Positions 3,200 to 62,600 of a stretch of 64,000 nt of DNA are shown in pieces. The position numbers and the translations under genes are program-made. Origin of the DNA: Taxawa tesnikishii (nom. ined.) (Eukaryota; Ascomycota; Dothideomycetes; Dothideales). The stretch spans positions 1,364,001 through 1,428,000 of the forward strand of contig JAPDRO010000001.1 in NCBI GenBank assembly GCA_030247885.1, in the 5' to 3' direction. The notes under the pieces are model-generated. The model had not been told where the DNA came from and did no database searches. It saw only the letters and a program-made list of their open reading frames with translations. Position 1 is the stretch's first letter; every line of letters starts with the position of its first letter.

Positions 3200-6100
3200 A
3201 TGTTCAGGGTACCTTCTTCAAGCCCTCCATCTACGCCGGACTCGCGGCGCGCAAGCAGGAACGACGATCCATCGACTACGCCAGCAGGACCTCCTCCAAC
3301 TGGCTACACTGCGCAGTCGTTTACACCGCAGGGACCTCCGCCAGCTTCTGTGTTCGGTAGCTCGTTCGCAGGCGCGACAAATACATTCCCTCATGTTAGG
3401 TCAGCTTTCGCGCCCACCGGCCAGCTGAATAGCCCCTCGCTGAAGGCGCCTCTTCACACCAATCCGCTCTCTGGCTTCCAATCCGTCAATGGCAGGCCCG
3501 CGCAAAGAGGGTTCACGATGCCTGACAGCAGCCCGCCAAGGTCTTACATCGAGGATGAGGAAGGAGACTATTCAGAAGATGCAGAGGGAGAAGAGATGGA
3601 GCAAGACAACAGTGAGATGGACACGGACCGAAGCGCGAGGTCTTACACCCAATCTGCCATGTCGTCACCCAGGCGCAATGGCTTTCGCAGTCCCAGAGGA
3701 CTAGGAGCGCTGGACTCCCCGCGGCTTGAAGAGGTCGAGGTTGGGAGAGGTCATGGACAAGTCATACTATTCTCCTGGGAACTCGAAGCCAACACAGCCA
3801 AGGGATTCTGCTGTTCCGGGCATCGCAAAGGCTCTGGCCGCTACTATGTCGAAGCCGACGCTCGTTGAGCCGGATGAGCTTGTGCTGCAGTCGGAGCAGC
3901 TGTTGGCCAACCTAGATGAGTCGCTGAAAACTAGGGGTGGTGGGGATGTGGACGATCTCGTGTCGAGGACGGCAGCACAACTTGGAAGCCTGTGGGAAAA
4001 GTCCGTGGAGAAGGAATCAAAACAAGGGGACATTGGTCCGAAGAACCGGAAGTCTGGCATCACAAACGCAAACTATCTCGCATCTCTGCTTCTTCAATTG
4101 CACCACCCACATGCCGGACAGCAAAACCCCAGCAAGAGTGTTTTGCAACCTGGTCATTCAACACGGTTCACTAACTTGGTCCTCCGGTCCAACGAAGGTA
4201 CCCCGGTTCCAAAGGCTTTGCTGGACTGGCTGAACACATATCACAATCCTTATCCGGATGATCTGGACGAAGTACTCCAGTGCAAGCCTAACCCCACCTC
4301 GAGCGAAAGATTTTGGGATGTTATTTACGCCACCATTCTGCGAGGAAATTTCACTGCCACACTTCAGCTACTGGAAACCGCCCGGTTCGACGAAGCCGAC
4401 ACTGCGCTGGAGGATGGCTATGAGGAACCGGGTTACCACGGGCAGCAGCTCAGATCGGTCGAGCATGTTGTTGATCAGCTGATTGACCTCCTGAAGACAT
4501 GCCCGGCTGTCCGAGATGGCGACTGGGATGTTCGAGACACCGAATGGACACTTTTTCGGAATCGGGTACGAGGCAACCTCGAGGACCTCGAGGCATACGC
4601 CGAGGGAGATAGCGCGGATCGCAGCAACGCGAATGACAGCATGGCGTTCCAATCCTCAAGGTTTGGACGAAGCAAAAACGACTTTTCGGTAAGTGCAATG
4701 AGCAGGCGAGCCGAGAGTAAAGTACCCTGGACTATCTACGAAAACCTGCGGTGTGTGTATGGACAACTTCAAGGCTCGAAGCCGGAGGTCACACTATGCG
4801 CTCAGGACTGGCTCGAGGCCACCATCTTTCTGACTGCGTGGTGGGACGGAGAAGAGGAGGGAGCTTTGAGCGGCAGTCTAGCAGCAAGTCGGCGCTCTTT
4901 ACGGCAGTCACAGCACACGCGCCAAGTCGACGTCTCACCGCTTGCGGCGTACCAGAAACAGCTATTGGCGGCATTCGCATCCATAACGGACAAGCCGGAG
5001 GATACGGCTTTCGGCCTCAATACTGTGGACACCATTCAGGTTGGTTTGGCTTGCGTTTTGGAGGGTAACGTAGAAGGTGCCGTCGACATTGTACGCGGCT
5101 GGTCCGTCCCTGTCGCAGCGGCTTTGGTCGAAATAGCGAGTGCTGGGGGATGGTTGCCGGAAGCAAGGCCGAGAAGCAGGGGTCTTATGGAGGGGCTGGA
5201 TGAGGATGATCTCATGGTGCTCAGCTCTGGACAGGAACGACAGCACGGTGATGCTAAGAGGGACGATGTCCTGATCAGCTATGCCAATCTACTCGCAGAC
5301 AGAGATGCATTCAGCAGTCAAGACGGGAAGCTTGTCCGAGAAGGCTGGGAGTTGGCGTGCAGGGTGCTCAGTCGCTTAAATAGTGCAGAAACTGCTCAAC
5401 GCAAGATTGGACAGCTGCTGGCGGAGGTTCCACTAGACGACACGGACCGCGTAGACAAGGTTTTGGCAGTCTGTGCGGACCTTGGCCTATCTGAACAAGT
5501 TCAGGGCATATCGGAGGTAGGGGTATCTGGCTCAGAGATCGGGAAGCATTCGGCTGACGTACAAACAGCGCTACGCAGATATTCTGGCGGACTCTACACA
5601 ATCCTACGGCAGCGCGATTGTCTACTATGCGCGAGCTCATTCGGTGCAGAAGATCAAGTCTACCCTCGATCTTCTCATATCAATGTGCCTCGTCCAATCC
5701 GCCGCCTACCCGCCCTCTTCATCTCTGGATAAGCAGCTCGACTCGTTAATCAACGACCAACGACACGCACTGAGCCAGCTCGCAAAGACAGATCTGCAAG
5801 CTGCTCAGCTCATCTCTACATACTTTAGCGGTTACGCCACCCTCCGGAAATTCTACCAGCTCAGAGACGAGGATGTGCAAGCGGAACCTTCGTTCTCTCA
5901 CAAGCGAGAGGCTGCAAAGCGCTGTTAGCTGTCATCGAAAGTGCGGCTGACAGCATTCGTGGTGGCTTGTATGATCCCGGAGTCGATGCCGTGGTGCAGG
6001 TGGATGCTTTACTGGCGCTGCTCGGCGAGGCTCTGCCGTTGATGAACCGTAAGTTTTCCCTTTTTCCAATTACAACTAGTACCACACAAAGCTTACCAAC

Positions 6101-8077: not shown

Positions 8078-11058
8078 TCACAATTCATCTCTCGGGTCCT
8101 TCTTTCCTTTCGCCTTACCGATCATCTCTAGAATCTCCTCTTCCGTCGGCATCTCATCATCCCCATTCACAGTGATGAAGTTAGACTTGGCCTCATCCGC
8201 GCTCGCAGTGGGTGCTGTGGTCGTCTCCCCACTACTGCTGCTAGTGCTCGACTTCGCCTTCTTGCTCTTTGTCGCCTTGGGCTTTCTGCTACTGCTGCGT
8301 TTTGGCGTCTGCATCTTCTTCTGCAGCAGTTCCATCATCACTTTGTTCAACTCCTGGGCCTTGTCCTCAATCTCCTTAACGCTGATGGCCGGATCATCGT
8401 TCTCCTTCAAGGCCTTCTGCTCCTTCGTCTTCGCTTCCAGCCACGACGCAATCGACTCGTAAACAGAGGACACGGAAGTCAGGTCTTCATTCGTGTATGG
8501 TGTGAAGGAGGGGAGTGCGGATGGTTTGGCAGTCGTGGAAGCGGTGGTTGGTTCAGGGTCTTCGAGTTCAGCAAAATCGTCAGCGGAGGCGGTACTGGTG
8601 GTCTCGGAAGATGCGGCGGCGCTGGACGAGGATGCTGCCTCAGCGGCAGACGACGCCTGGGCAACTTGTTTAGCGATCATTTCGATCAAGCTCTTCGTGC
8701 TATCGAGCGAGCTCTGCAGGAGCTTCAGCTTCTCAGGCCTAGCCGCCGCCTCTTCTCTGCGCTTCTGGACGGGGTCGACCAGCGCCTTTAGGTCCGCTAA
8801 CTTGCCCCTGAGCGTTTCGGTGGTAGCGGTCGCGCCCTCGCCGTACAGCCACTCGCTCGTCGAACTAAGGAGAGAAGAAAGCTGTTCGCGCACAGCTTCC
8901 GTGGAGGCGGACTCGAAGCTGACGTCAGTCAGAAGGTCCCGAACGCGGTAAGTGTAACCCTCAAGCACGTTCAGAGCCTCTTCACGTGCAACGCGCGCTT
9001 TGTCAGAGCGGTCGAAGGCTGCGAGGCGATCCTTCATACGTTGCATCTCCGCAGGCGCGGGCTGTGGGAGGCCTTGTGACACGACGGAGAACTTGATGTT
9101 GATACTCTCAGTCCGCTTCTTGGGCTTCAGGTCTGGCTTGGCGGCATCGGTGGCCTTGGAATCACCACTGGAGAGGGAACCTGATGTAGCATCGGCCACA
9201 GTCTCTGACATCGCCGACGATTGTTCCCCTTCTTTCAGGGGCTCTTGTTCACCCTTCTTCGAACCAAAGCCGAAGAGGCCCTTGACAGAGTCTCCAATGC
9301 CGCCGGATTTAGCGGTGCCTTCGACTTCGCAGCTGGCAGTTCCAGACAGGACCTCCGGCATGCCATCGACAGGGCTGAGTCTGATGGAGAACTTTGTCGA
9401 GATCTCGTCTTTGCTGCAGCCAAACTTGTCCGACAACGAAGCCACCGAAGCGGTCAAATTTTCTGTTTGAGCCTTGACGACAGGCCGGTCAGTAGCGTCA
9501 ACCTGCTGGTAAAGAGTGAAGGCAAAGTCATCCAGGTTTTTGAACGTGACTTGCTTCGCAGCTCCGATATGCGAGGTTGGAGCAAACAGCTTTTGCTGCC
9601 TCTCTTTGCCGTCCGAGTACGTCACACCGGCGGCATAGACAGCGGCATCAGAATCTCGGATCTCCTTCACCCGGAATATGGGGCTCTGGCTCGCGGCTTT
9701 AAACGCCGCTCCGTGGGCTGCAGACTCATCGGCGTTGACGTTCGTTCGTACCTCTGTGCTTTTGCCAGCAAGAGCCTCCAGCTTCTTCTGAACGAACGGT
9801 GTGCGTATTGCTCCTCCATGAACGATGATGGAGTCAAGGTCAGCAACTGACAATTTCGCAGCTTCCAGAGCCTGCTTGACCGGTCCCTCGACTCTCTCTG
9901 CGTAGGAAGCAGCCATCTCCTCGAATTCAGCTCTCGAGAGCTTGGTGGCGAAATCGATGTCCTTGTATAGACCCTCAAAACTGGACCTAACCTCATTGTT
10001 GGCGCTCAGGACCTGTCTTGCCCTTTCCGCCTCCCTCCATAGCTTCGCGGCTGTTCTTCCATGTCCCTTGACTTCCTCAGCGGTGATACCCGCGCTGACC
10101 GCTTGTGGCTTCTTCACAAAAGCATTGACAATGTGGTCCATGATCAGCCCGTTCAATGCGTCTCCCCCATCGTTCTGTCCCATCCCGCACCCAGAACCGC
10201 CACTTCCTGAACGGTCTTGTTGAACCTTCCCACGTCCTTCACTTCCCTTCCTTGCATCCTCAAAACGGTAGCCGTAGTCGATCCAGAACCCATATCGAAC
10301 ACCATATGAATTTCTGGCTTCTCGCCCTTTGTGACAGTAGGAAACGTCCTCTTGACCGCATAATCGATACCGACTGCCAGCCCATCGCTGACCAGGCTCA
10401 TGACGTTTATACCAGCCAGCTCGGCAGCGCGCTCGACAGCCCTTCTCTCGTCCGCAGTGTAGAATGCTGGAATGGTAATGACGGCATCCGTGATCCTACT
10501 TCCCTTGCCCGCCATGGCCTCTGCGTTCAACCTGATGTTCTTCAGCTCCATAGACAGTAGCTCTTCCACGCTCCACGGCATTTCGGTAGAGCTGAACGCC
10601 GGTGACTGTATCACAACTGTGCCCATCTCTTCAACTGCTCTGATCGGGACGGCTGGATGCGCCTCACGGTATCGGTTGACAATGGTGGCACCAGCTTCGC
10701 TAGGAACCAGCCCTAGAAGAGACTTGAGGCCTGTATAGACATCACCGGGAAAGCGGCCGGCGAGTGCAAGAGCATCACCGCCGTAGAGTCTCTCAGGGAA
10801 TTGGCCAGCCTCGAGTTTTCCGGCCGGTTTGAAGCCAACCACGCTGGCTTCCTTGCGTTTCGAGTCCTTTGTTAATACGATATCCAGAGGAGTGCCAGGC
10901 TTGACAATGACAGCTTTGATATAGGAGTTTCCGAGATCGATGCCGAGAACTGCGGATGCAGCACAAGCGGTCGTTGTGAAGACGAGTAGAAGGAGAGTGC
11001 ATGTTGCAAAGATGGAGGGTGTTTGGGCACGCCGGCGACCCGGCCTTGCCGAATTCAT
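8078..11058 (-). CDS. lhs1: ER lumenal Hsp70-like chaperone Lhs1 / GRP170 (HYOU1 family)
   Basis: Large Hsp110/GRP170-type chaperone, about 990 residues, known in the family as nucleotide-exchange partner of BiP in the ER. I start at the ATG at 11058 because it gives a clean signal peptide (hydrophobic TCTLLLLVFTTTACAASA); an in-frame ATG at 11115 would bury it. The actin-like ATPase motifs are present: VLGIDLGNSYIKAV (phosphate 1), VFDMGSGSTTATVL (phosphate 2) and VHGGAIRTPFVQKKL (adenosine). A long acidic/Ser-rich C-terminal part follows and the protein ends in RDEL, a K/HDEL-type ER-retention signal. The frame breaks once, at the C5 run 10164..10168: one more base gives GWDRTMGGDALNGLI, exactly the Hsp70 pattern. 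No introns. Confidence 0.93.
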
Positions 11059-14575: not shown

Positions 14576-15597
14576 TCAATACTCATACGGGCTATTCGGC
14601 TGTGCCTCGTAAACGTATAACGTCGAGTTGTGCTGATCTGGTAACCAGTATACCCTCAACTTCCCGTCTATAATTGCGGCATCGAAGGGGTTCTGTGTGA
14701 CCGGCACGCCCAGTGCACTCGTCATTGTGATCGGAACCTCGTCAAGTGCAATCATCGACTCAACGTCTACAACTGCTATACCTCCCAAATTGCATCCTCC
14801 CACGGTTGCCACGCCGGAACAAAGCATCACACTGCGTCCACCATATGCTGCCGCATGGCCCAAAACTTGCAATCCTGGTAATCAATGAAATAGCTTGGAT
14901 TCCGCACCGTGCTCTCTCTCCTCAGCACCTGGTTGTTCCGGCCCAATTGCCACATCGTCGCGTTTCGTGCACCCCAATTCAGAGCCGCAATTTGGCCTTT
15001 CTGCACATCGTGCACAATGCCACCAAGGTGGTCATCGTAATGCAGAATCGTCTGCGCAGTCAAGGAAGTGGGATCAACTCGGACCACGCGCGCGGTAGTA
15101 TTGGGTCTATACTGCGCCAACGTGGCCCAGATCCAGCGGCCGTCGTAGTCGAGCCCGCCATTGTGGTACTCCACGTCTCCCGGCTTGGTCAGTGTGGAGT
15201 CAGCGATGCGGGCTCCGTTCCCATCAAAGACTATGAGATGCGCGAAACCTGCACCTGCGGTCCGATCCGTCCCGTTGATGATACTCGAGTTGGGATATTT
15301 GATGGTGGGCGAGGTGTATTCGCCTGCGGATACGATGTACCGGTCATCAGACAGGCGGACCATACCCTCAGGCTCCCAGGTTTCGCCTTGGAAAGGAACG
15401 GCGGAGACGAGACGCCAGACGGTTGTCCGTCCGAGGGTTTGGAAGGCAGCAATGATGGCGGAACCATCAGACTGTGCATGGGATGGTGGCAAGGGCGAGG
15501 GCGCGAACGGTGTATTGGGTTGCGTGACTGTAATGTTCAGGCCTTGGGAAAAGGCAGCCAGACTGGCGAGAGCGGCAAGGGTGGATTTGAAGTACAT
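14576..15597 (-). CDS. Secreted beta-propeller-like protein of unknown function (DUF6454-like)
   Basis: Single exon of about 340 residues. The ATG at 15597 gives a good signal peptide (MYFKSTLAALASLAAFSQG); the in-frame ATG at 15627 does not. The body has evenly spaced short strands with Gly/Asp turns: WEPEGMVRLSDDRYIVSAGE, GGLDYDGRWIWATLAQYRP, ARVVRVDPTSL, CNLGGIAVVDVESM and DGKLRVYWLPDQHNSTLYVY. This resembles bacterial and fungal proteins of a propeller-like family of unknown function; the family name is from memory and tentative. Several N-x-S/T sites fit secretion. The frame breaks once at an A4 run, 14862..14865; one added base restores YQDCKFLGHAAAYGGRSVM. Catalytic role unknown. Confidence 0.75.
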
Positions 15598-16214
15598 CTC
15601 GAAACACGCCAACGTGAGACCAAGCAACGAGCTGGAGAATTGGATTTTGGCTTACGGGAAGTTGGGCTATATCCATCCACGTTACCATGCTTACGAAGAT
15701 TTGGTACTGTTCCTGTGTTTGTACTTTTGGCAAGGGCACGAGGTCGGCTCCTGGAATTCGATTGGCTGTCTGTGTTGTACAGGGCAGCGATGACTCGTTT
15801 CGAAGCACCAAACAGGCAGGTGAACAGTGCTTCTACCGCCTCTGAGTTGCGAGAAATGGAAGAGATAAACCGTGCGCAGTTTGTATGTAGTAGTTGGTAT
15901 ATCTTGGGTGACGTCACAAGCGGACAAGTAACCCGATTCGACAAGACATCTACTTCCGCAGACCATTGCGCAATCGGGTATTTACTATCTATGCTTTGAG
16001 GAAGTGAAGAGAGCATCATAGATGGATCAAAGGGTAACATGTCACGTGGATGTGACAATTCGAAGATCTCATCAGTTCTCATCTGTCGTTCCCCTGTCGT
16101 TTACCTGGCATAATTCTATACACATCGCGACAGTAGTACTATAGGCATTCTGTTCGGTTGGCTTAATCCAATGGTGGAACTCTGTTACTGTTTCACTCTG
16201 CTTAACGTAAGGAG
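15598..16214. promoter_or_regulatory. Divergent intergenic region upstream of the Zn2Cys6 gene
   Basis: About 0.6 kb between the secreted-protein start and the likely start of the Zn2Cys6 regulator. No repeat or strong motif beyond a TGACGTCA palindrome (CRE-type bZIP site) at 15910-15917. Confidence 0.5.
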
Positions 16215-18085: not shown

Positions 18086-18142
18086 AAAACGCACGTTGAT
18101 TGCGGGGCGTAGACTAGACCTTGCCTGGTTTGGCTTCATATT

Positions 18143-19939: not shown

Positions 19940-21811
19940 ATGTTTGAACCGCTCAGTACTGCAAAGACGGTGTGGCAGGCGTACGGCGTTGCCGGGCTTG
20001 TCGGCATATCCGTCGCTCTCGTTCTGACCGTCGTTGCGCAAGGCGTCAAGCGTCGGCGCTTCTATCACAATCTCGTATGTATTCTCCGGATCGAAAGTTT
20101 GCGCGTTCTAACGGCCATGGGACAGCCTGGTCCACCACACGACTGGATATGGGGACATCTGAAGATTATGGGAGATTTGACCAAGCTTGTCCCTGCCGAT
20201 GCTCACCCGCAACATATGTTCACTCTGCTACAGCGGCGCTACAACCTGCCAGGTCTGTTCTACCTTGACTTGTGGCCTTTTGCACGATCCATGGTGATCG
20301 TAACGGATGCGCCTGTCGCATACCAAATCACGCAGAAACGCGTATTACCCCATCACGAGTGGGAAGACGAATATGTTCATGCTGTCACTGGTGGTGGAGG
20401 CTTTTTACAGTAGAGTCGAAAGAATGGAAGCTGCACCGGTCGTTGATGAGCCCTGCGTATGCGCCCCGAAACCTGTTGGGCGTGTACCCGAAGGTCGTGG
20501 AGCAGGTGAGGAACTTCCGGGGTGTGCTCGAGCGGTTGGCGACGACAGAGTCGGTTTTTCGGATGGAGGAGATGGCGGCACGCTTCTCGTTTGACGCTGT
20601 GGGTTTGTTCTTGTTGGACAGAGAGTTCAACGTGCAGACGGACGACAAGGGTCCGGGAAGACAGGCGTACGATGCGCTTAGGGACGCGATGAGAATCCAA
20701 ACCCCAGTTAACCTGACCCTCTACGAGAGGGTCGCTCAACGCTGGCTAGTCCAGAGCCGAAGAGCGGTACTTCATCGCTTGGTAGCTCCGGTGGTCCAGC
20801 ATCGCATCGCTTCAACCGGCGACATCAAGGAGAAACGGCAGAGTCATTTTGAGACAGTCCTGGACACGGAGCTGCGCATGGCGGAGAAGAAGGAAACCTG
20901 AACGAAGTCTCACGTGGAATACTAGCCGAGTGCGTATTCGATCGAGGAGATTTGAGCGACGGCTGACCTTCGTAGCATCAAAACCTTGTTCATTGGCGGA
21001 ATCGACACTTCGGCTAGCGCTTTGGCAGTAAGATTTCCACATCGACCGTACCCTCGAGAGCCTCACTGACACAGACAGTGGGTCTACTTCTTCCTGAGCG
21101 TATACCCAGACGTTCTGCGACGGATGCGCGAGGAACATGACGCTAAGATTCCGGGGCCGAGGGAGGGCGCCCTGGAGCAGTTGGCGCAAAATCCATCACT
21201 CTTGAACGAACTCGAATATACGGCCGCCGTAATCAAGGAGACACTGCGCTTGAGGCCCGGTGGCAGTGTGGTAAGAATGGTCGAAAAAGGGTGGGTCGTT
21301 GAGCGCTTGCGGCACTTCCTCAACACGAACCGCTCCTAACACTGCGGCAGAATGATGATCGAAGACCAAGGAAATGAGTATGCTGCATGGGATCACCCTG
21401 TAAGCATTCTGTTCTCTCTTCTCTTGTCAGATGTTGTACTGATCCGTCTTTTCACAGATCATGATCAATGCACACGGAATACAACGTAGACCAGAGTACT
21501 TCCATGACCCAGACGCCTTCGATCCCGACCGATGGTTGACTGCTTCTCCGGATCCTGCGAATGCATGGCGACCCTTTGAGCGTGGCGCACATTCCTGCCT
21601 CGGTCAGGAGTTTGCCACCATGAACAGCAAGACCGCGCTGGTGGCCACGGTACGAATGTTCGATTTCGAAACTAAGTATAGCGCGGATGCATTGTCCTGG
21701 CCTGATCCGGCCGTAGGTGGGAAAGAAGTTGACGGTAAAGCGTACCAGGAGCTTACGTTCAGCGCGAAACCGAAGGGCGGACTGCCGATGGTGGTTTCTC
21801 TGAGGAGGTAA
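19940..21811 (+). CDS. Cytochrome P450 monooxygenase, membrane-anchored
   Basis: Six short introns: 20075..20123, 20930..20975, 21028..21078, 21291..21350 and 21400..21457 are clear, with CTAAC/CTGAC branch points; I could not exclude another. An N-terminal membrane anchor (VAGLVGISVALVLTVVA) is followed by basic RRR and the proline hinge LPGPPHDW. The I-helix oxygen-binding motif is FIGGIDTSASAL, the K-helix ExxR is IKETLRLRP, and the heme loop is FERGAHSCLGQ with the axial cysteine. The frame breaks at a T5 run (20402..20406), where one T gives GGGGFFTVESKEWKLHRS, and at an A3 run (20894..20896), where one A gives KENLNEVSRGILAD. The CYP family is not determined. It likely works with the neighbouring dioxygenase; that is inference. 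Confidence 0.9.
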
Positions 21812-22168: not shown

Positions 22169-23643
22169 CTACACGCCACTGCTGTCGGTCCTGGCAAACC
22201 GGTATCGAGGCTGGTCATTAACCATACCACCGAGCGGCATGTCACCGCCAGCCGCGAGCGGCGCGTAGAGCTCATCGTTGGTGGCCATAGCCGGACTCTC
22301 CAGCCTTGCAGACGTCAGGCTCTCTCTCCCTCCCGCCTGGCCCAAATGCGCAAACCTGCCAAGCTGGCTCGCGGTGGTGACGGCAGTCGGACGCTGCACG
22401 TATGTGTTGTCCGAGCTGTCAGATCCACGGCTCATGGGCTGCACATTCCCGCTCGCGGTCCTGAACTGGCTGCCGTACATGCCACGCGCATCGACCTCTT
22501 GACTTCTGCGACCTTGGCCGTTGGCCAGTACGGAACCATCTGGACCTCCGTTGTCGCCACCCGCAGTCTTCTCGGCGAGCTCCTGCGCGACCTTGGAGGC
22601 GTCGACCTCGTTAATGCCGGCCGCCATCAGGTGCTGCTTCTTCTTCTCAACCTTGGCCGCGTGGTCCATGTCCTGACCTGGGTTCGCGGTCTCGTATTCC
22701 AAGATCTTGATGAACTTGTAGAAGCCAGCGGCAACAATGGAACCGAGAATGGGACCGAGCCAGTAGATCCAGTGGTAGCCAGCGAACTCACGGTCAACGA
22801 CGGCAGGGCCGAAGGAGCGGGCGGGGTTGAGAGAGCCGCCAGTGAAATAGACACCTGTGGGTCCGCCGTGATCAGTACGGCAGCAGACGAAATGGGTTAG
22901 GAATCTTCTTACCGGTCAATTCCGCAATGAAAAGGGAAAGACCGATTCCCACTGGAGCGATGAAGGTACCCTTGTGCTTCTCGGCAGCCAACATGAAGAT
23001 GGTAAAGACAAGCTGGGCGGTGAGGAACATCTCAATGAAGAGACCTTGCGCAATGGAGGTGCCGCCGCCCAAGGTAGTGCGGACGTTGAGACCGCCAGGG
23101 AACATGCAGGATACCAAAGCAGCTGAGGTCATACCACCTAGTATTTGGGTAATGAAGAGCAGGGCTCCACGGACCCAGGGAAGTGCACCGATCAGACACA
23201 TACCGAAGGTGACCTGTTTAACACATGAGCATGTTGCTTCGACAAGCACATGTCAAGGATACGTACGGCAGGGTTGAAGAGACCACCACTAATTCTGAAG
23301 AACACCCATGCGTTGACGGCCAACGAGAAACCGAAGCAGAGAGCGATGTACTGTAACTGCTGCGGATTGCTACCCGTCTGGGCCACTGTGAGACCGGCCG
23401 ATGACGGAATGGAATTGGCGACCTGCGTTCCCGATAAGGCAAAGAAGAGAAAAGCACTGTGCCGACGAATTCTCCGCACATGGCGATGAAGTGATTTCTG
23501 ATGTGGTCGGGAACGCGGTGGATGAGCGGCAAACGCATGTCCTGATCGGTAAGGACAGCATTAGGATCTGCGGCCTTGGTGAAGGGGAGAGCGAAGGCCC
23601 TCCCGCCGACTGGTGCCTTGAGTCCCATCAGCAATTGCTCCAT
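22169..23643 (-). CDS. Aquaporin (MIP family), water-channel type
   Basis: Three exons: 23643..23267, 23213..22913 and 22854..22169, with introns of 53 and 58 bases. Six membrane segments are visible, beginning [14 protein letters not shown]. Both pore motifs are present: [12 protein letters not shown] (spliced across intron 1) and [16 protein letters not shown] serine follows the second NPAR where aquaglyceroporins carry Asp, which suggests an orthodox water channel. A long hydrophilic C-terminal tail of about 190 residues follows ([16 protein letters not shown] onward, rich in Ser/Gly), presumably cytosolic and regulatory. The frame breaks at an A4 run, 23450..23453; one more base gives [15 protein letters not shown]. 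Confidence 0.9.
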
Positions 23644-42400: not shown

Positions 42401-42991
42401 CGTTGATGAAGTGCGTTGTCCCGATGGTTACGCTCGCGATTTGATCTGAAGGTACGGCTGACTTGGTGAGCACAGTGCGAACCGCTTGCTCAATGCTCGC
42501 TGTGACATCTGGGGTCGTCGGAGTCTTGTGGTGCGCCAATACGCCGCGTGAGGATGAATGTTGGAGGGCCGGATCCAAGGCCACAGCATCGGTGTTAGTC
42601 CCTGCGAACGATCAGCCTGCTGCGACGTGTAGAGGTGCGAACACGATGGATGCAATTGGCGAAGCGCTTCTGAAGCCTTTATGTGTCAACCTTCCAGGCC
42701 GACCGAATGGTACCGCAAGTCACGATCCATCACCATTGGAACCTGGATGAGGGAAAATATGAAACTTCCACCCATATGCTTGCTTTCGACCTTAGAGGGC
42801 TAGTACGAAGGAGAACAAGGTCATTGCGTTCTCAACCCAATGGTTTGACTTGCTTCCACTCGTTCTTGTCGATCCAGTTGAATGCCCCGCTGAGAAAAGC
42901 GCTGGAGCACGACACGTCTTCGACGAGTTGAAAAGGGACAAACAGCATTCTTACCTCCAACGTCAACACCAATCCTCACTCGCTTGGCCAT
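39485..42991 (-). CDS. Fungal hydantoinase/oxoprolinase-family enzyme with C-terminal DUF917
   Basis: Five exons: 42991..42955, 42601..40697, 40644..40575, 40501..40388 and 40324..39485. Intron 1 is long (353 bases) and splits the first nucleotide-binding motif, restored as IGVDVGGTNTDAVALDPA. Further blocks are IGTTHFINAVVEQD, YVGYLDGGLHIDG, EVANIGFLERENAAILNAAI, VVDVGGTTSDVG and HSIGLGGGSIVR, typical of ATP-dependent hydantoinase/oxoprolinase HyuA-type proteins. The last 430 residues (ITETDIDYLADGCYVLGCAG onward, NVYWGGHMGSPATSVERL, VMGLEIGGANGLEPFLVG) are DUF917, fused as usual in fungi. Reaction expected: ring opening of a hydantoin or oxoproline-like substrate. At the C5 run 41759..41763 one base is missing within DVGGTTSD. 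Divergent from an NCS1 permease. Confidence 0.9.
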
Positions 42992-43616: not shown

Positions 43617-45399
43617 ATGGAGTTCTCGTCGCTCGTGGAAGTTCTCAAAGTTCCGTCTTCAGCCACGACAACGTCCAACATTTGGATCAACGATGACATA
43701 CGGCCTCTGCCACCTCGTCGGCGCACCTGGACGAGGTGGGCATACATATCTTTCTGGGCTATCAACCAGATCTGTATCTCCAACTGGCAGCAAGGAGCCT
43801 CTCTCGTCTCCGCTGGACTTTCTGTGTGGCAGGCATTTATCGCCATCGCAGTTGGAAAGGCTATCATTTCCGCTGTCGCCATAGCCAATGGCTATGTCGG
43901 AGCCGAGTGGCACATCGGGTACCCGGTCTTCAGCCGCGCGATCTGGGGCATCTACGGTCAGTATGTGGCCTTAGTGCAACGAATCGTGCTTTCGCTGGTG
44001 TGGTTTGCAGTACAATCTTGGACAGGAGGATTATGCGTACAGAACATCCTCGCGGCGATATTTCCAACTTTCCAGCGGATGAGGAACCGTTTTCCACCGT
44101 CTGCCAATATGGACACGAAGCAGTTCATCGGCTGGGTTGTTTTCAATGCCTTGATGGCCCCAATCTTGTATTTCCGTCCGGAGAAGATGAAGTATTTGGT
44201 TCTCTGGATGAACATTATCTCCGCCATCACCCTGGTGTGCATCATGATTTGGTCACTCGCGGTACGTGTTACCAAGGGATTGTACAATCCCCTAGCTGAT
44301 CGTCTCTAGACGGCACAAGGTGGCGGGCCTCTATTGGCTGCCCCTGCCACTGCTCCCTCCGGGTCCCAACTCGGATGGGCTATCGTACACGGCATAACCA
44401 CAGTCATCGGTGGAATAGCTGTTGGTCTGACTAACCAAATGGACTACAGCCGATTTGCGCGCCGTCCAGGTGATCAGGTAAGCCCTTACTAATTGCTGCG
44501 AGTGCAAAACCAAGCTGATCGTCCTCGAGGTTGTCGGACAGTGGGTCTCTATCATGGGCTTTGGCACCGTCATGCCACTGTTTGGCTGCCTAACATCTTC
44601 CGCCACTCAAGGCATCTATGGTGAAGCGATCTGGAACCCGCCCAACATCGTGCAGAAGTGGCTGGACACGGACTATAACGCCAAATCTCGTGCTGCTGCT
44701 TTCTTCGCCGGCGTCGGGCTGGTAGTTTGCCAACTGGCCATCAACTCGATCGATAATGCGTTCTCGGCCGGGATGGACTTGAGTGGGCTTCTCCCCAACT
44801 TCATTAACATCCGTCGCGGCGCATACCTTGGCCTGATTCTCAGCATCGCCATGTGTCCCTGGCAGCTGCTCTCGTCAGCCGCTACGTTCATTAGCGTGCT
44901 TTCTGCTTACAGCGTGTTCCTAGGGCCTATGGTCGGGATGCAAGTTTGCGATTACTGGGTTCTTCGCCGGAGAAGGATCAAGCTCTCCGATCTTTACCAT
45001 CCGCGGCCAGATGGCATATATCACTTTACTCATGGTCTGAACTGGAGGGCCTTTGTAGCATGGGTTTTGGGTTGGGCAAGCCAAATCCCCGGTTTTGCTC
45101 ACGCGGTCACCCCCAATGTTGTGGTGCCTATTGGGTGCACGTATTTGTACTACCTTGCATATCCGCTGGGCTTTGCTATCAGTTTCTTAGTATATTGGTT
45201 GCTAAACATTGCTTATGCTCCGCAAGGGCTGGGAGATATGGATGATTACGACTACTATGGAACCTTTTCTCCTGAAGAGGCGGCTAGGTTAGGAGTTGCA
45301 CTGCAGGAGATAGAAGGGTGGGCCGAGGCCGCGCCAGGCGTTGTTGATGAACGAGACGAGAAGAAGCTAGGGGAGGAAACGAGCATCAAGGTAGTTTAG
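43617..45399 (+). CDS. NCS1-family nucleobase/allantoin/hydantoin permease
   Basis: Exons 43617..44261, 44310..44477 and 44530..45399; introns 48 and 52 bases. About 560 residues with roughly twelve membrane segments. The N-terminal block NWQQGASLVSAGLSVWQAF and the following IAIAVGKAIISAVAIANGYVG are TM1-2 of the NCS1 (Fur/Dal4) family. GAEWHIGYPVFSRAIWGIYG, LTNQMDYSRFARRPGDQ and SIDNAFSAGMDLSGLLPNFI are the other signature blocks. Such permeases import uracil, allantoin, hydantoins or related compounds with a cation. Since it is divergent from a hydantoinase and shares a GATA-bearing promoter, hydantoin-type uptake is the best guess. The acidic cytosolic C-terminus has lysines suited to nitrogen-triggered endocytosis. 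Frame intact. Confidence 0.93.
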
Positions 45400-49335: not shown

Positions 49336-51144
49336 TTAATGCAATACCAACTCGGGTCGGTTGGACAGTTGGCCGAGTTGAACTGTGCCCTGTACAGGCT
49401 TGTCAGACACCTGTTCCAGGAAAGCACCCCCTTCTTGTTGAGAACGACCATGGAGTGGGTCCGGGAGATGTAGCCTTTGAGCAGGTTCTGTTCGGAACGT
49501 GTTGTCAGCATTCGATCGTTCCGCACTCGCGATAACGCGGTTAATGACGAGGCAGAAACAGGTCCGACTAGCGCAGGCGAACAGATATGTTAACCCCACA
49601 ACCCAAACCCACAATCATACGTGCAGGCATGCAACTTTTGCGACCGTGTCCACGCCTTCCCTTGCAGTCACGTATTCAGTCCGCACACGTACCTTGTATA
49701 TAAGATTCGCGATCAGACATTCGACCTCGTCGCCTTCAATCTCCTTCTCGCCACCAATCCTTAGCGCAGCGGCAAACTCGGCGACGGGAACCCTGCTCCT
49801 GCGAACCGGTTCCGCATTTTCTTGGCCCTCTTTGGCTGTCTCGTAACCACCCGCTATGTAGACTTTACGGAATAGGTTTCGTAAGCACACATCCCTCCCC
49901 GCTCTAGAGTAAGGTAGATGCGCCGCTTCACAAACTCGTCCTCGCCCGCCTGAAGCGCGGCGTCAAAGCCTGCCAGATCACCCCTCCTGACGCAGGTGGA
50001 CAGGGAGCCGAAAAGGCGCTGCAGACGAGGGTGAGGCGCGAGTAGGCGTTCCGAAGGGAGAACGTGTGAAGTCAGGAGACGGGTTGGGATTAGGTAAGTG
50101 AGGATGAGTTGAATGTTGTGGGACGAGGAAGAGTGGCACGCAGCGTAGGCGGCCGCGAGGTGGGACTCTGCTTGGGTGTAGTTCTCTTCGAGGAAAGAGA
50201 GAACGCCGCAGTAGTAGTTGAAGGTCACCTGATGAGACTTTGGAAAGGCGGATAGAGGGGGTCTGTTGCGCTGGCGGACAGGGAGCGCAGGATGTTTTTG
50301 GAGAGGGCAATAGAGTTGAGCTGGAAGCGTGACATGATTGTTAGCTCGGGGAAGAGTGCACGGCAAGACAGGGTTTTTGGCTGGAAGAGGAAAGGTGGGT
50401 ACCTTGAAGTAGGTCTTGAAAAGAAGGTTTGCGATGTAGTAAAGACCCCATTTGCGACTCTCGGCTATGGGAGCTCTAGCCTCGGTGTCAGCAATAGATC
50501 TGGGCACCAAGAAGATGAGTATGGATTGCAGAGCGTGCTACGGACCTATCCGTGATACACAAGCTGAAAATTCTGTTGATCTGCCTTGCTGCATCTTCGA
50601 GTTTCTCCCTGCTGCCTTCGCCATCCACAACGTCGTCTTCAAAGCCAGAATTGAACGAGACGTTTCCCTTCCTCCTCGCCAGGCTTTCGTCGGCCTTGAT
50701 GGCGAAGACGCGCAGGTACTTGCCGGCAACATACAGACACGGTATTGTCCAAGCGTCGAATATCTGGGCCTGGTATCCCTTGTGAAGCGCGTTCACCATG
50801 TCTTTCCAAGCATCGTACACCTTTGCCCAATCCGCACTCTCAGCACTAGTCCTGCCTTGGTTCTTGCCGAGATTGACGGCCTCTTCTGCTGCGATGATCT
50901 CGCCGACGGCCTTCCAATATGCAACCAGAACGTCTACCCAAGCATTGCTCTCTTGCTTCGTGAAATGGAGGTCGGAGATGGCGTACGAGAAGTCGGACTT
51001 GGCGCCATAGGCGTTCACGCTTCGGTGGAACGAGTACAGACGCCCGCTGTCGTGCTTGGGTGCGATGGGAGAGAAGACGTCGGCGAGCGCGTAGCCGTTC
51101 TCGGCTTGGAATGCCCGGATGAAGCTGTTGGTGACGCCGTCCAT
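49336..51144 (-). CDS. csn12: PCI-domain protein Csn12 (COP9-associated / TREX-2-like)
   Basis: Exons 51144..50546, 50475..50403, 50320..49693 and 49487..49336; introns 70, 82 and 205 bases. The N-terminal half begins [17 protein letters not shown] and includes [20 protein letters not shown]. The central helical repeats read [39 protein letters not shown] and [12 protein letters not shown]. The PCI winged-helix end is [37 protein letters not shown] and MVVLNKKG. Csn12/Thp3-type proteins link transcription with mRNA processing. One base appears missing at three runs: 50257..50261 (restores [15 protein letters not shown]), 49897..49900 (restores [13 protein letters not shown]) and, less surely, 49427..49431 near the C-terminus, which decides whether the stop is at 49336 or 49290. 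Confidence 0.85.
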
Positions 51145-52757: not shown

Positions 52758-54029
52758 CTACAACTTCGCTTTTTCGCCAGTCTTCGCCGCTTCCACTCTG
52801 CTTCCCACATCCACGCTCTCCCACCATGGCCATGCTGCAGGTGCATCCTTGTCTCCTGTTCCCGTGAACCGCACCGGCCTCTTTTCCATGAATGCCTTGA
52901 TTCCTTCCGCTTTGTCTGCACTGCTGAACATTTCGTAGATCAGTCTCGAATCCAGCAAATGCGTCGCTTCAGCACTATCTGGCCCTCTCCACATGAGGTC
53001 GCGCATTATGAATGTGCTGACAGTACTGGTGTTTTTGACAACTTCATCTGCAATCTCGAGCGCACGCGGTAGAACCTGCTCCGGCTTCGGCAATGTCTCG
53101 CTGAAGAGGTTGCTCAGGAGCGCGTGGGAAGCCGGATAAACGGCGCCTGTAGTGCAGAGATGTAGGGCGCGAGAGTGGCTAAGAATGTCAGATTCATGTA
53201 TACCAGTCTCCAGTGCTGCGCGTCACGATCATCTCATCTCATCTTCGATCGCATTCATGCCGCAGCAGGCCGGGTTTGATTTTTCAATTTCCTTCTCGAC
53301 CCATGCCTTCCGTCTCGTTTTACTTGAATGGCCACCACCCCACAGATCTGACAAGGACAAAAGAAAAAACCGAACTTACCCAATCAACCTAGGCAAGAAA
53401 AAACTACTCGACGCCTCCATGATCAACCCCTGCGTGCAAACACAAACCCGATCTTTGCCCCTCCCACGCGATTCTGATGCTCATCGGCAGTGTCATGGTA
53501 ATCCCTATACCCACCGCTGCGCCCTGAATCGCCGCTATCGTAGGCTTGCGGCAGCGGTGGATCGCCAGCGCCACCTGGGAAACCGTCAGTCAGTCAGTCA
53601 GTCAGTCAGTCAGCGGTCTTTGTCAGATCCAGGCGCAAGCTGGTGGGGCCGATATCTAACGCTGTGTTCGGAGATCGAAAGCCCACCTACCCGTCCGCCG
53701 CCGTCGCGGTGCTCTTCCGGCTTCTCCAATCCGCCGGCGAGCGTATTGTTCGAAAGGTCGGCGCCCGCGCAGAAGAAGCGTCCGTGGCCGGTCACGACGA
53801 TGCATTTTACGCGATCGTCTGCGTCGAAGAGGCCGAAGGCGGACTCTAGCTCCGTCATCATGGTGTTGGTGAAAGCATTATGATTGTCGGGACGATAGAG
53901 CGTTACTAGGACGACGGGGGTAGGTGTGGGTGATGTGTCGGGAACATGGGAGAGGCGGATCTGGGTGTAGGGGAGCTCTGTGTAAGATGAGGGAAGAGTG
54001 GGCATTCTTGGATCTATGGGAAGTGGCAA
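52758..54029 (-). CDS. Enoyl-CoA hydratase/isomerase, probably peroxisomal
   Basis: Three exons: 54029..53691, 53574..53380 and 53178..52758. The crotonase fold is evident: [20 protein letters not shown], then [11 protein letters not shown] (oxyanion hole), then [19 protein letters not shown], then [20 protein letters not shown]. Length about 317 residues. The C-terminus ends in AKL, a peroxisomal targeting tripeptide (PTS1), and no mitochondrial presequence is obvious, so fatty-acid or branched-chain breakdown in peroxisomes is likely. Two C4 runs, 53427..53430 and 53458..53461, each lack one base; restoring both gives [19 protein letters not shown]. Intron 1 contains a CTGA tetranucleotide repeat. 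A start at 54005 (second Met) is possible. Confidence 0.88.
53585..53613. repeat. CAGT/ACTG tetranucleotide microsatellite in an intron
   Basis: About seven units. On the coding (minus) strand it reads GACTGACTGAC.., repeating the fungal branch-point consensus CTGAC every 4 bases directly before the acceptor TTTCCCAG at 53575. Confidence 0.9.
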
Positions 54030-56306: not shown

Positions 56307-57371
56307 ATGGACGTATTCAGATCCGCACAATGCGCAAAACAAGTCCTACATCCTCAAAGACTCCGTCTACGCAACATTACGACCGCCGCATCACCCGCTC
56401 AATCACCAGCTCCGCTCAACCCAAATACCTCCTCCACCTTACTTACCCTGCAGCCGCAAACACTCCACTATTACACCGAAAGCATCCCACCAACAACCCC
56501 TCAACTCGCCTACAGCAACACCTTCTTCGCCTCTTCACCGCCTCGGCACCTGTGGACCGCCGCCCACTTCCGCTCGTTCCCACCTTCCCCCGTCCCGAAG
56601 TAGCCTTCCTCGGCCGCTCAAATGTCGGCAAGAGCTCCCTCCTCAATGCCCTTTTCAACCGTCCGAAGGTCAAGGCGGCGCACGTGAGTAGCAAACCCGG
56701 ACGTACGCGAACAATGAACGCCTTCGGAGTGGGCGGCGAACAGGTCGATATAGGTGCGAGAACAGAAAAGTGGAAAAGTCTGGGCCGAGGAGGTGTTGTA
56801 GTCGTCGATATGCCCGGGTACGGGAAAGGAAGTCGAGAGGAGTGGGGCAAGGAGATTTTGAAATATGTCGAGGGGAGAAAACAGTATGCATGCAAGATTC
56901 TTGTGGAAAGGGGAGGCGGCGACGCTAACAACATGCGCAAGATTACGAAGGACGTTCTTGCTCGTCGATGCTGAACACGGTCTTAAGTCAACCGACATCT
57001 CCCTCCTTGAGCACTTCCGTGACCGCGGTATCGCACATCAGATCATCCTGTCCAAGGTCGATAAGTTGCTTTATCCGCACGCAAAGGCGCCGTCCCCGCA
57101 GGGCTTATCGAACCGGTTGCTTAAGTTGCGCGACGTTTGCGAGAACATAAGAAAGCAGGTGCAGCCGGACGACTATAGAGGCCCAAAAGCACTAGGAGAT
57201 ATACTTTGCTGTAGTTCCGAGAGAGAGGGTCAGAATCTGGGCGCCGGAAGGGGAAAGCTGGGCATCGATGCTGTTAGATGGGCGGTTTTGAGCGCGACCG
57301 CTCTGGACTGTGACGAAGCGGGCCGACCAAGAGGAATTGGAGACTACACGGTCCTTGAAGAAGAGCAGTAA
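56307..57371 (+). CDS. EngB/YihA-family GTPase, mitochondrial
   Basis: Exons 56307..56883 and 56942..57371; the 58-base intron (GTATGC..CGCAAG, branch GCTAACAA) restores [17 protein letters not shown]. The N-terminus ([24 protein letters not shown]) looks like a mitochondrial presequence, followed by [20 protein letters not shown]. GTPase motifs: G1 [16 protein letters not shown], switch area [13 protein letters not shown]3 [11 protein letters not shown]4 ILSKVDKL, G5 region LSATAL. EngB proteins help assemble the large ribosomal subunit, here presumably in mitochondria. The frame breaks at the C5 run 56587..56591; one more C joins [19 protein letters not shown]. Confidence 0.9.
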
Positions 57372-57486: not shown

Positions 57487-59190
57487 CTACGCGGCAAGAA
57501 CTTTATCCACCATCTCCGCGCTCAGGCCCAGATAATTTGCTGGATCACACAGCTGCCGCATCTCATCCTCACGCAAGCCAGCTTTCTTGATCTCCTCATT
57601 TTCCAAAAGCAGGTCCACCAGGGCTTTCTTCTCCAGCTGCGCCTTCCGGCACAGATCATAGACAAGGTCATGCGCTTTCTGTCGTCCCAATGTCTTTCCT
57701 AGACCCATCATGACCGCCTCGGAGACGACTGCCCCACGGGTCATGGCGAGGTTGCGGACCATGGCCTCCGCATCTACTTCTACACCAGACATGAGGTACT
57801 GTGTGTGCTCGAGCACGGAGCAGGTTAAGGCGCAAATCTGAGGTAAGAGGATCCACTCAATCTCCCAGCTGCCGCCTCGTAAGTTATTGAGACAGCGCTG
57901 GTAATGGTTGTCCTACTCACGGTCCTGTGCTTCTTTCGTGATCAGCTACCATAGCCTCGGTGAGACCATTGCTCATAGCGCGTACACTGCTCGCCATGGA
58001 GCAGATGTACGCACATCCGATGGGGTTGCGTTTTTGTGGCATCCTGGATTCTAGCAATCAGCACTCTCCTGGAATATCTCTGGAAGTGAACTTACGTGCT
58101 ACTGCTGCCGCGATGAGCCACATATGGTTCGCTTGCCTCTCCAACTTCAGTCTGCATCATGAGCTTGAGATCCGTTGCAAATTTGGCACACGTGGCCGTG
58201 AGCAGCGCAAGAAAGGAGCCAACCTCCGCAATACAGTCGCGCTCCGTATGCCAGGCTATGACAGGAACACCAAGACCTAGCTCGTTCGCGAGGAGTTCTT
58301 GGCATCTGAGACCAAGGCTTGTGCTGCTGCTGTTCGGCGGGCTGGAATAGGAAGATGCTGACGAAATAGTTGCGAGAGTGCCAGCCGCGCCGCTGAACTC
58401 CAGGACCAGAAGGCGCGGACGGAGTTCTTGCAGCCGCTGCTTGTGTCGCTGGAAGGTCGCAAGTAGTCGTGCCATCTTGAAGCCGTAGGACATCGGCACT
58501 GCTTGCTGCAGGTTGCTTCGAGCGGCCATTGGCGTGAGCTTGTGCTCTTCACATAGCTTACGTAGATCATCCATAATGCGATCGAGGCCGTTCTCCGCCA
58601 CGACTAGAGTATCTCGCAACTGGAGTACCGTTGCCGTGTCCGTAAGATCCTATGGCAAGTTGAGCTTGCAATCGCTCGAACAATGAGCTACAACTATGCA
58701 CCTGAGTCGTCGCGCCCCAATGAGCCCATTCTCCAAGACCATCTTCGACTTCATTGACCTGCTTAACTAGCTGCTTGACCACCGGAAGAACAGGATATCC
58801 AATGAGTTCTGTTTGCTTTCGCAGCTCATCGAAGTCGATCTTCCCAAGTTGGCAGTGCTTGACGATCTCATCCGCAGCGTTCTGCGGTATTATACCAAGC
58901 CGTGCCTGAACTCTCGCAAGCGCGGCCTCGAATTCGAGGTAATATGACGTTCGGCGCTCGTCTGACCAGATACGAGCACTGTCATCGGTTGAGAAAATGT
59001 TTCTGAATACGCGAGAGTCAATGACGGTCGTTAATGGTCGTGTGAGGCCGGGCGCTTCGAATGGCGTGCCGTGAGAGCGTCCATTAGAGATCGGAGCGAA
59101 ACGATCGAACGGAAGGCACAATCTCCGTCTTGGAACACATCTACCAGAGGGCCTTACAATATGTCTTAACACACTCGCTGTGCGCATCAT
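57487..59190 (-). CDS. Fumarase/aspartase-superfamily lyase, PcaB/adenylosuccinate-lyase-like
   Basis: Four exons: 59190..58702, 58649..58096, 58043..57921 and 57875..57487. The core begins VFRNIFSTDDSARIWSDERR and contains GEWAHWGATTQDLTDTATVL, then WHTERDCIAEVGSFLALLTA and the superfamily signature SSTMPQKRNPIGCAY. The subgroup looks closest to 3-carboxy-cis,cis-muconate cycloisomerase-like proteins, which in fungi act on aromatic breakdown products; adenylosuccinate lyase is less likely because of the GEWAHWGATTQD block. The first 60 residues (MMRTASVLRHIVRPSGRCVP) are basic and may form a mitochondrial presequence. Introns are 52, 52 and 45 bases. Frame intact. True substrate unknown. Confidence 0.85.
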
Positions 59191-59690: not shown

Positions 59691-62600
59691 TCAACCGCCC
59701 TGTCCGTTTGGCGGAGTATAGCTGGACGAGCTCATGCGCGGCAGAGTGCTCCAAGGCCCCCGCCAGCACCAAACAGTAAGGGACTGTGCATGCCGGACTG
59801 ATGCCCTGGAATGCCCCCGTAGGTATGTGCGTTGCCCGTGTGGCTATACGAAGCTCTTGTTCCGAGAGTCCCGTTTTCGCCTAGCAAAGGCTGGGGTGTC
59901 GGGACAATGGAGGACAAAGCCTCTGGCTGCAAGGAGCCGCTTCGGATGGAAGTTGCAGAGTTGACACGAGAATGGCCGCTGGAGCGACGTACTGCTGCGT
60001 TGGGGGACATGCGTGCCGAGTGCGGATGTGGAAGTGAGGGACTCGACTGTGGCGGAAGTCCATCAAACCATGGGTCAGTGGAAGAGGGCGGCAGAGGAGT
60101 AGAAGAACGCGGAGCAGACACTCCCCAGATACTGGCAGAAGAACGACGCGCAACTGTCTGTAGAGGCATCGGGCGGCCTTTTCTGTCCGCACCGTTGCCG
60201 ATGCGTCCGGAACCGTTGAGCGAGTCCGTACTGCGTGAGAGCTCATCGTCATAGTTGTATACAGCTGCATCCGCAAACGAGCTCGTGGGCGGTGTTCTAG
60301 GAAGATTGTCATCTCCGTCATCCGCACCGACTAGGTCATCCACCATCTGATTCAAGCGCTCGTCCATGCTGCGCGCATTGGGCAAACTCGGTGGGTTGTT
60401 CTGTTGGGCTTGAGACACAGCCGTTGCTCCATTAGGCTTCTCGTGAACTGTGGCAGGCGCGTTGGCGGTAGACTCGTTCTGGGTGCTCGAAACGGGCACG
60501 AAAACATGTTTAGAGGTCGTCGTTTCATCTCCATAGGCGAACCCTGAACCAGTAAAGGTGATTGGTGCGTTCTGATTCTTGTTAGATCTCGGCCAAAACT
60601 TCTCAAGACTGGCCTACCTTATCCACTGCGAGGAGTAGCCCGTCGATCAAAAGCCCACGGATTCGAGTGAGCATCTCGATGTTCGGCAAACAGCGCGACA
60701 CATCTTTGTCGCTAAATGCTGGTCTTGTGGAATCGGAGTCTGGGAGAATCCAAGTTTTCTGTGTGTGCTTTGAGATCAAAGGTTTGAATCCTGCAGAGTC
60801 GACATCTTCCTCTAGTTGATACTGAACCTCTGGAAGATTCCTGACAGGAAAGATCGACGCGATCACCGAAAGCGTTGCTGCATAGCTGCTCCACAGTTTT
60901 CTGATACTTGCCTGCAAAGCATCGTCACCGATACCAGCGGTCAGGAGATGAGTGTTGGTTAACAACCACGAGCTGTGTAGTCGCAATCCAGGAAGCAAAT
61001 GCCGAGCCAATGGCGTGACCTCGTTCGCCAGCTGCTCAGACTCTGATGTTGCAGAACCATCCCCATGAGCCAACAAATCCTCTTGGTAGACATCCAGTAG
61101 CAAGGCATAGGTTTTGACGTTCAATCTGAAGCACGAAAAGAAGGATTGCATGTAACGCGAAGCTTCTGGATTTCCTGCAGCGTCGTCAGCATGAAATACA
61201 GCATTTGCGCCTGACTCGATTCTTACGTTCAAACTGTGCGGCGGCCGCATACTGAGCGGCAAAGTTGACGAAGAAGAGTTTGGAAAGAGTACTTTCGTGC
61301 CCACGTCCTTTGAGCTCGGCGGCCAGATGATTCAAGACTTCTTGTTCCATCTCTTCGTATCCAGCAAATGACTGCCCTTTGTAGCACATACTGTGAAAAC
61401 GAACGAACCAAGCAACCAGAACTTTGCGTGAGCCATCCCTATCTCCGGGAGCACTGTGAAACATGAGTTTGCCCTTGTCCCACGCCTTGTCTACTTTCTT
61501 CATTGCAACGCCAAGATTGGAGCCTGCGTTTGGATGAGGTTCATCGACCACTATTGCACGATACAAGTTGTATATTGTACGAAGATGGTCTCCTTCTTCA
61601 GCTGCGATCACGGACTGCTGGTGGTAGGACATGCCTGACGAGGGGCGAAGAGAGCCCGCAAGTCCATAATACCCGATTGCAGGGCCCCAATCTGGTTCCC
61701 TGTCCAGGCGTTCAGTCGCACGGTAGCGAGATAGGTCGCCCAGATAAATCAGTGTCTGATGAACTGACAATAGAAGTTGCTCTCGCAACGTAGCTGTCAG
61801 TCCAACCTCAGGCGCACGAGCTGCTTTGAGTGTCAAATTCTGCGGTTGTCTGTCAAGTCCGATGTAGATTGTCTTACCATCGGCTTTCACTAGCTGTGCG
61901 ATGCGCTCCAGCTCCGGGAGACCACCGAAGCGAGCATTCAGCCTCTGGATATACTCACGGTAGAAGCGTTGACTGTTCTTCAGAAACTCGAGGTACAGCT
62001 TCACGAACTTGCGGGTCTCTACTGCCTTCGCTGGCGTTCCCTTGCGCAACTATAGGTTTCATGAGCGCACATCCGCGCCTGCAGTGTTCCGGCACCCACC
62101 TGGCTAAGTTGCTTTCGGAAGGAGGTATTAACACGACTGTGTGCCATCCACAAGTGCGCTTCTACATCTTGTGCGCGAGCGTAGAGGAAGTCGGCAAACG
62201 CGACCTTCTCACAGGCTACACGGTATCTTGAAACCAGTGAGCATGCTTGGTGTATGTTCTGCATTCCCGATGCATAGCTTACTCGTCCAACAGCTGAGCG
62301 GTTTGTTCCAGAGGCGCGCCCGGATCGGTAATCTTCGCATTGAGCCGTGTTTCAACGGCTTGCGCATTTCTAACCGCAGTCAGTCGCAGAGCGCGAACCT
62401 GAAAAGCGCATCGGTACGCACTGCTCGGCCTCCTTCGGGCTGATTTCCATAATTGTTTGTACTCTGTCTCTTGCTCTGCATAGAGCTTCTGTCTCCCCGG
62501 ATGTGACCCCACGGTCAACCTCACGGTCAGACGTATGTATAGTATCCGGGGATCGTGGAGGTTCGCACGCGGTCCATGAAGGGCGGCAGTCGAGGAGGGA

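What the first reader, a model, noticed from the sequence alone, without database searches (positions are those of the whole stretch)
3200..59761. Systematic one-base losses at homopolymer runs in conserved genes
In eleven conserved genes the frame fails at a run of 3-5 identical bases, and adding one base of that run restores the family sequence: Nup85 (A3, 5916), Lhs1 (C5, 10164), the secreted propeller-like gene (A4, 14862), PhyH (G5, 19221), P450 (T5, 20402; A3, 20894), aquaporin (A4, 23450), WD40 (G3, 38912), hydantoinase (C5, 41759), BTB (G5, 48375), Csn12 (C5, 49427; C4, 49897; G5, 50257), enoyl-CoA hydratase (C4, 53427 and 53458), EngB (C5, 56587), SMG7-like (C5, 59757). All resolved cases are deletions, which is the signature of uncorrected pyrosequencing or long-read data. 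Automatic annotation of this contig will split these genes or invent tiny introns.
Basis: partly seen in the sequence, partly recalled or inferred. Interest (0 to 1): 0.75.

Follow-up and report, generated by a model that had tools for sequence, protein, structure and literature searches.

The report
Sequencing errors break fungal genes
Several ordinary fungal genes in this stretch look broken because single letters were dropped from runs of repeated letters, almost certainly a sequencing mistake of a well-known kind and not biology.

Summary
Observation partly confirmed; artefact reading supported. All 8 belong to the one-base-short frame class; no one-base-long call and no in-frame stop appeared. 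At the hydantoinase site 80 of 81 homolog ORF alignments (80 bacterial loci) are exactly one base short, the other in the same class. Four control stretches show only introns. Runs of 4 or more lie within 8 nt of 7 of 8 sites, against 13% background. The window has no run of 7 or more (4 to 7.6 simulated) and one C/G run of 6 or more (7 to 17 simulated). This fits nanopore-like long-read consensus lacking short-read correction, not decay, introns or programmed frameshifting. Of the other 9 sites, DUF6454 and the first P450 site have fair support; WD40, EngB N-terminus and PhyH weak; second P450, BTB, first Csn12 and SMG7 are unconfirmed. No reads or second assembly were available. Known phenomenon; low interest.

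The parts
5916..5918 (+). Nup85 gene (aligned 4686-6035): frame falls one base short at this run
   Evidence: aligned to Nup85 of PDB 4ycz, 178 of 426 aligned residues identical; one intron 5517-5568 and one -1 call at 5917; codon model places a deletion at 5923 in 3 of 3 settings
10164..10168 (-). Lhs1/Hsp70-like gene (aligned 9482-10500): one base short at this run
   Evidence: aligned to yeast Sse1 (PDB 3c7n), -1 call at 10170; codon model 10185 in 3 of 3 settings
23450..23453 (-). aquaporin gene (aligned 22694-23508): one base short at this run
   Evidence: aligned to yeast-type aquaporin PDB 2w1p, 118 of 228 identical, -1 call at 23457 plus two introns
41759..41763 (-). hydantoinase/oxoprolinase gene (aligned 41047-42602): one base short at this run
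   Evidence: 80 of 81 ORF alignments from 80 bacterial loci give spacing excess exactly -1, the other -4 (same class); 8 of 8 loci tried in the spliced aligner give -1 at 41765
49897..49900 (-). Csn12/PCID2-like gene: one base short at this run
   Evidence: aligned to human PCID2 (PDB 8r7j), -1 call at 49898; codon model 49867 in 3 of 3 settings
50257..50261 (-). Csn12/PCID2-like gene, second break, one-base-short class
   Evidence: aligner printed +2 at 50269, the same frame change as -1; codon model deletion at 50230 in 3 of 3 settings
53427..53430 (-). enoyl-CoA hydratase gene (aligned 53379-53915): one base short at this run
   Evidence: -1 call at 53425 with PDB 6ijk and at 53425 or 53431 with 4 of 4 bacterial loci
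53458..53461 (-). enoyl-CoA hydratase gene, second break, one base short
   Evidence: -1 call at 53466 with 6ijk and at 53460 or 53466 with 4 of 4 bacterial loci
14827..15627 (-). DUF6454 secreted-protein-like gene; frame change near 14862 (fair support; pieces searched apart, not read through)
   Evidence: Pfam PF20055 positions 12-202 in one frame and 210-288 in the next, 20 nt excess; codon usage
20402..20406 (+). P450 gene; frame change near this run (fair support; pieces searched apart, not read through)
   Evidence: codon model deletion at 20405 in 3 of 3 settings; Pfam p450 in downstream pieces
27941..29581 (+). control: Pus7/TruD gene, no frame change
   Evidence: 195 of 504 residues identical to PDB 7mzv
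57496..59001 (-). control: trans-aconitate decarboxylase-like gene, three introns, no frame change
   Evidence: 239 of 430 residues identical to PDB 9h3i
43680..45195 (+). control: cytosine/purine permease, two introns, no frame change
   Evidence: 5 of 5 bacterial loci tried
56594..57068 (+). control: EngB GTPase domain; its frame change is an intron, 56884-56941

Best explanation
The window is a long contig of a filamentous ascomycete whose consensus was made from error-prone long reads, most likely Oxford Nanopore, without effective short-read correction. When a run of identical bases passes the pore its length is under-called; the consensus keeps the shorter length, so the reading frame of an intact gene falls one base short there. 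Shown: frame-class bias, homopolymer association, conserved sequence on both sides, absence of long runs. Inferred: the platform and the missing correction step.
For: 8 of 8 confirmed breaks are in the one-base-short class, none one long, with an aligner of symmetric sensitivity; two-sided sign test on 8 of 8 is 0.008 (arithmetic). 80 of 81 hydantoinase ORF alignments show exactly -1. Run of 4 or more within 8 nt of 7 of 8 sites, P 4.5e-6. No stop codon was aligned to a homolog residue in the 10 genes. Longest run in 64 kb is 6; 0 runs of 7 or more against 4.0 to 7.6 simulated, with 1 of 75 simulated windows having none; one C/G run of 6 or more against 7.2 to 16.8, with 0 of 75 simulated windows at 1 or fewer. 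C/G runs stop more sharply than A/T runs (continuation past 5: 0.03 against 0.18), as described for nanopore (PMC8486125, passages). Nanopore-only fungal assemblies are reported to lose reading frames this way (PMC7500977 and PMC9453082, passages).
Against: No reads, second assembly or fungal control genome was available. The reported nanopore fungal case had more insertions than deletions after polishing (PMC7500977, passages). A GC-matched bacterial yardstick (72 kb of 140 loci) has only 2.66 C/G runs of exactly 6 per 64 kb, so the C/G deficit is weaker against it than against the Markov null. One shift of the opposite sign is proposed by the codon model at 3744 in the Nup85 N-terminus and is unresolved. 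With a stricter frameshift prior the codon model turned most breaks into introns (2 deletions, 1 insertion at convergence). One confirmed site has only an A3 run.
Confidence: 0.95

Rival explanations
1. Real gene decay: the genes are pseudogenes carrying true single-base deletions.
For: The frames are broken in the sequence as given.
Against: No aligned in-frame stop and no shift of the other sign in the 10 aligned genes; decay would add nonsense changes and larger losses. Broken genes include core functions (nucleoporin, ER chaperone) while neighbours are intact. Decay does not explain the lack of runs of 7 or more.
Confidence: 0.02
2. A living mutator lineage (for example one lacking mismatch repair) with deletion-biased slippage that has shortened runs and broken genes.
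For: Would give both homopolymer contraction and frame breaks; not excluded by sequence alone.
Against: Would need a haploid fungus to live with several core genes broken, or masked in a polyploid; no other mutation class is seen. The viability argument is recalled knowledge.
Confidence: 0.02
3. The frame changes are small introns that the reader misread.
For: Many frame changes in these genes are indeed GT-AG introns: 12 in the alignments, 48 to 116 nt. The codon model alone accepts spurious introns at some of these sites.
Against: At the confirmed sites the aligner could choose an intron of 42 to 160 nt, cheaper than a shift when splice signals are good, and did not. At the hydantoinase site the spacing leaves no room: excess -1 nt.
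Confidence: 0.01
4. 454 or Ion Torrent error instead of nanopore.
For: Both err in homopolymers; Ion Torrent under-reports run length (PMC4719071, passages).
Against: 454 errs in both directions (same passages); a contig of at least 64 kb, and run lengths ending at 5 to 6 with C/G worse, fit nanopore better. Not decisive.
Confidence: 0.15

Closest known systems
Homopolymer-length errors in nanopore-only fungal assemblies (Drechmeria coniospora, PMC7500977; passages seen)
   Same: Indels in homopolymers break reading frames of conserved genes; in that paper fewer than one-sixth of 305 conserved genes were full length before polishing.
   Different: There polishing gave more insertions than deletions; here the 8 confirmed breaks are all in the deletion class.
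Gene-fragmenting deletion errors in long-read assemblies (Kastor paper, PMC12007338; passages seen)
   Same: Most indels are false deletions, most often after four to five identical bases.
   Different: Bacterial assembly; there A/T runs dominate, whereas here 6 of 8 confirmed sites are at C/G runs.
Nanopore read error profile (PMC8486125; passages seen)
   Same: Runs above 5 under-called, C and G worse than A and T.
   Different: Describes reads, not a finished consensus.

Membership tests
Nanopore-type homopolymer consensus error | Frame breaks sit at homopolymer runs | tested here: met
   7 of 8 sites within 8 nt of a run of 4 or more, background 13.0%, P 4.5e-6
Nanopore-type homopolymer consensus error | Deletions dominate | tested here: met
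   8 of 8 in the one-base-short class (one printed as +2, the same frame change)
Nanopore-type homopolymer consensus error | Runs above about 5 under-called, C/G worse | tested here: met
   No run of 7 or more, one C/G run of 6 or more, against Markov nulls; weaker against a 72-kb GC-matched bacterial sample
Nanopore-type homopolymer consensus error | Accurate reads show longer runs | not testable with these tools
   No reads, no whole genome held
Pseudogene decay | Nonsense changes and mixed indels beside the frameshifts | tested here: not met
   No aligned in-frame stop and no opposite-sign shift in 10 genes
Spliceosomal intron | Extra DNA of intron length at the frame change | tested here: not met
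   Hydantoinase spacing excess -1 in 80 of 81 alignments; no intron chosen at the 8 sites
Programmed ribosomal frameshifting | A shift site shared by homologs | tested here: not met
   Bacterial hydantoinase homologs cross the site in one open frame; breaks lie at unrelated sites in unrelated genes. Fungal homologs were not available for most genes.
454 pyrosequencing error | Over- and under-calls both frequent | tested here: inconclusive
   Only under-calls confirmed, n = 8

The most novel reading that the evidence does not exclude
The short runs are real: a living fungal lineage with deletion-biased slippage has eroded homopolymers across its genome and tolerates frame breaks in core genes, through extra gene copies or frequent slippage in expression.
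Probability: 0.02. Interest if true: 0.7.

Novelty: already known. Interest (0 to 1): 0.1.

Why it matters
It matters for annotation. Gene callers will split these genes or invent small introns, and a comparative study could score conserved genes as lost. The missing long runs give a quick check that needs no reference. If the shorter runs were confirmed by accurate reads it would instead be a striking case of a mutator genome, but nothing here favours that.

Tried and rejected
A codon-usage hidden Markov model was the first test. With its first priors it explained most breaks by spurious introns (2 deletions, 1 insertion at convergence). With looser priors it gave 8, 8 and 9 deletions against 1, 3 and 3 insertions. 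Several of those calls failed later checks: the deletion at 58973 lies inside the trans-aconitate-decarboxylase-like gene, and one at 42499 inside the hydantoinase gene, where alignments see no such shift; the insertion near 50525 lies in an aligned intron (50476-50545); the insertion near 62020-62032 is replaced by introns in the first setting. The deletion at 60113 and the insertion at 3744 remain unresolved. I therefore relied on protein homology.

A first homolog script found no ORFs because its motif filter was wrong; one search replaced it. A scan of viral contigs for a Pus7 relative found nothing. DUF6454 was sought in 19 bacterial genomes and not found, and it rang in none of the 14 control genomes either, so this says nothing about its absence. 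Rfam at gathering scores and ARAGORN found nothing in the window. The species was not identified. No fungal genome was available as a run-length control; bacterial loci are a poor substitute.
Full report
What the window is. It is about 54% GC and carries fungal-type genes with short GT-AG introns: Nup85, an Hsp70-like ER chaperone, HET, Pus7/TruD, EST1/SMG7, permease, aquaporin and others. No whole genome is held for it, so reads, neighbours and a second assembly were out of reach. The species was not identified.

Is the observation right? The finding lists 17 sites in 13 named genes. I wrote a spliced protein-to-DNA aligner that may choose introns of 42 to 160 nt or frame shifts of either sign at equal cost, and ran it on 10 genes. 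In some searches it found one-base-short changes in Nup85 (5917), Lhs1 (10170), aquaporin (23457), hydantoinase (41765), Csn12 (49898, and 50269 printed as +2, which is the same frame change) and enoyl-CoA hydratase (53425 and 53466). It found no one-base-long change and no stop aligned to a homolog residue. Four stretches served as controls: Pus7, the trans-aconitate-decarboxylase-like gene, the permease and the EngB GTPase domain show introns or nothing. Twelve introns of 48 to 116 nt were recovered in the 10 genes.

Strength of single sites. For hydantoinase, 80 bacterial loci were fetched (the best 80 of 519 confirmed relatives). In plain tblastn, 80 of 81 ORF alignments from these loci have a DNA-minus-protein spacing of exactly -1 between the two frames, and the remaining one is -4, the same class. 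Eight of the 80 loci were also put through the spliced aligner and all 8 agreed. For enoyl-CoA hydratase, 6ijk and 4 of 4 bacterial loci tried gave both breaks. Nup85, Lhs1, aquaporin and Csn12 rest on one PDB homolog each.

Bias of the method. In two genes without breaks, 115 of 120 planted deletions and 118 of 120 planted insertions were called with the right class. So 8 of 8 in one class is not a method bias (two-sided sign test 0.008).

Homopolymers. Seven of the 8 sites have a run of 4 or more within 8 nt, against 13.0% of random positions in 10,822 aligned coding bases (P 4.5e-6); three have a run of 5, against 1.9% (P 3.7e-4). Within 12 nt it is 7 of 8 against 17.5% (P 3.4e-5). The Nup85 site has only A3, which is uninformative.

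DUF6454: Pfam matches in two frames with 20 nt excess, which is one short of a multiple of three and too small for an intron, with codon usage agreeing. First P450 site: codon model. WD40, EngB N-terminus and PhyH: codon usage prefers the one-base-short class, weakly. Second P450 site and SMG7: weakly prefers the other sign. BTB: no shift. First Csn12 site: one of three settings, outside the alignment. All three positive controls gave the expected class. From memory of fungal family sequences several of the unconfirmed ones look right by eye, but that was not tested.

Run lengths. The longest run in 64 kb is 6: nine A/T and one C/G run of 6, none of 7. Markov models of order 1, 2 and 3 fitted to the window itself give on average 7.6, 4.0 and 4.1 runs of 7 or more (0, 1 and 0 of 25 simulations had none) and 16.8, 8.0 and 7.2 C/G runs of 6 or more (0 of 25 with one or none in each). 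In 140 bacterial loci (728 kb) runs of 7 or more occur at about 3.7 per 64 kb, and in the GC-matched 72 kb at about 6.2. C/G runs of exactly 6 occur at 14.9 and 2.7 per 64 kb, so the C/G deficit is clear against the whole set and the Markov nulls but weak against the small GC-matched set. No fungal yardstick was available.

Interpretation. One cause explains all of it: under-called runs in a long-read consensus. Published descriptions match: nanopore handles runs up to 5 well and under-calls longer ones, C and G worse (PMC8486125, passages); nanopore-only fungal assemblies lose frames at homopolymers until short reads are used (PMC7500977 and PMC9453082, passages); false deletions after 4 to 5 identical bases dominate in a bacterial long-read assembly (PMC12007338, passages). 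Against a simple match, PMC7500977 saw more insertions than deletions after polishing, and PMC12007338 saw more A/T than C/G errors. 454 errs in both directions, and early PacBio is described as little biased by run length (PMC4719071, passages). The platform remains an inference.

Rivals. Decay predicts stops and mixed indels, not seen in the aligned genes. Introns are excluded at the hydantoinase site by spacing and were not chosen at the others. Programmed shifting would not hit unrelated runs in unrelated genes. A mutator lineage cannot be excluded without reads but would have to live with core genes broken.

Verdict. The list is longer than what can be proven here. The phenomenon is well known, so interest is low apart from its use as a warning to annotators.

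Noticed in passing
57496-59001 (-): Intact homolog of trans-aconitate decarboxylase 1 (PDB 9h3i; 239 of 430 aligned residues identical), three 52-nt introns.
   Followed up: partly
40693-42584 (-): Hydantoinase/oxoprolinase A domain and an S-Me-THD N-terminal domain lie in one open frame (40693-41739), suggesting a fused protein.
   Followed up: no
3744: The codon model wants a one-base-long change in the Nup85 N-terminal region in all four fits; the only hint of the opposite sign, unresolved.
   Followed up: partly
53585-53613: A 4-base repeat (7.2 copies) lies inside the aligned intron 53575-53690 of the enoyl-CoA hydratase gene.
   Followed up: no
   Followed up: no
12753-14291 (+): HET-domain (heterokaryon incompatibility) protein in one long open frame.
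   Followed up: no
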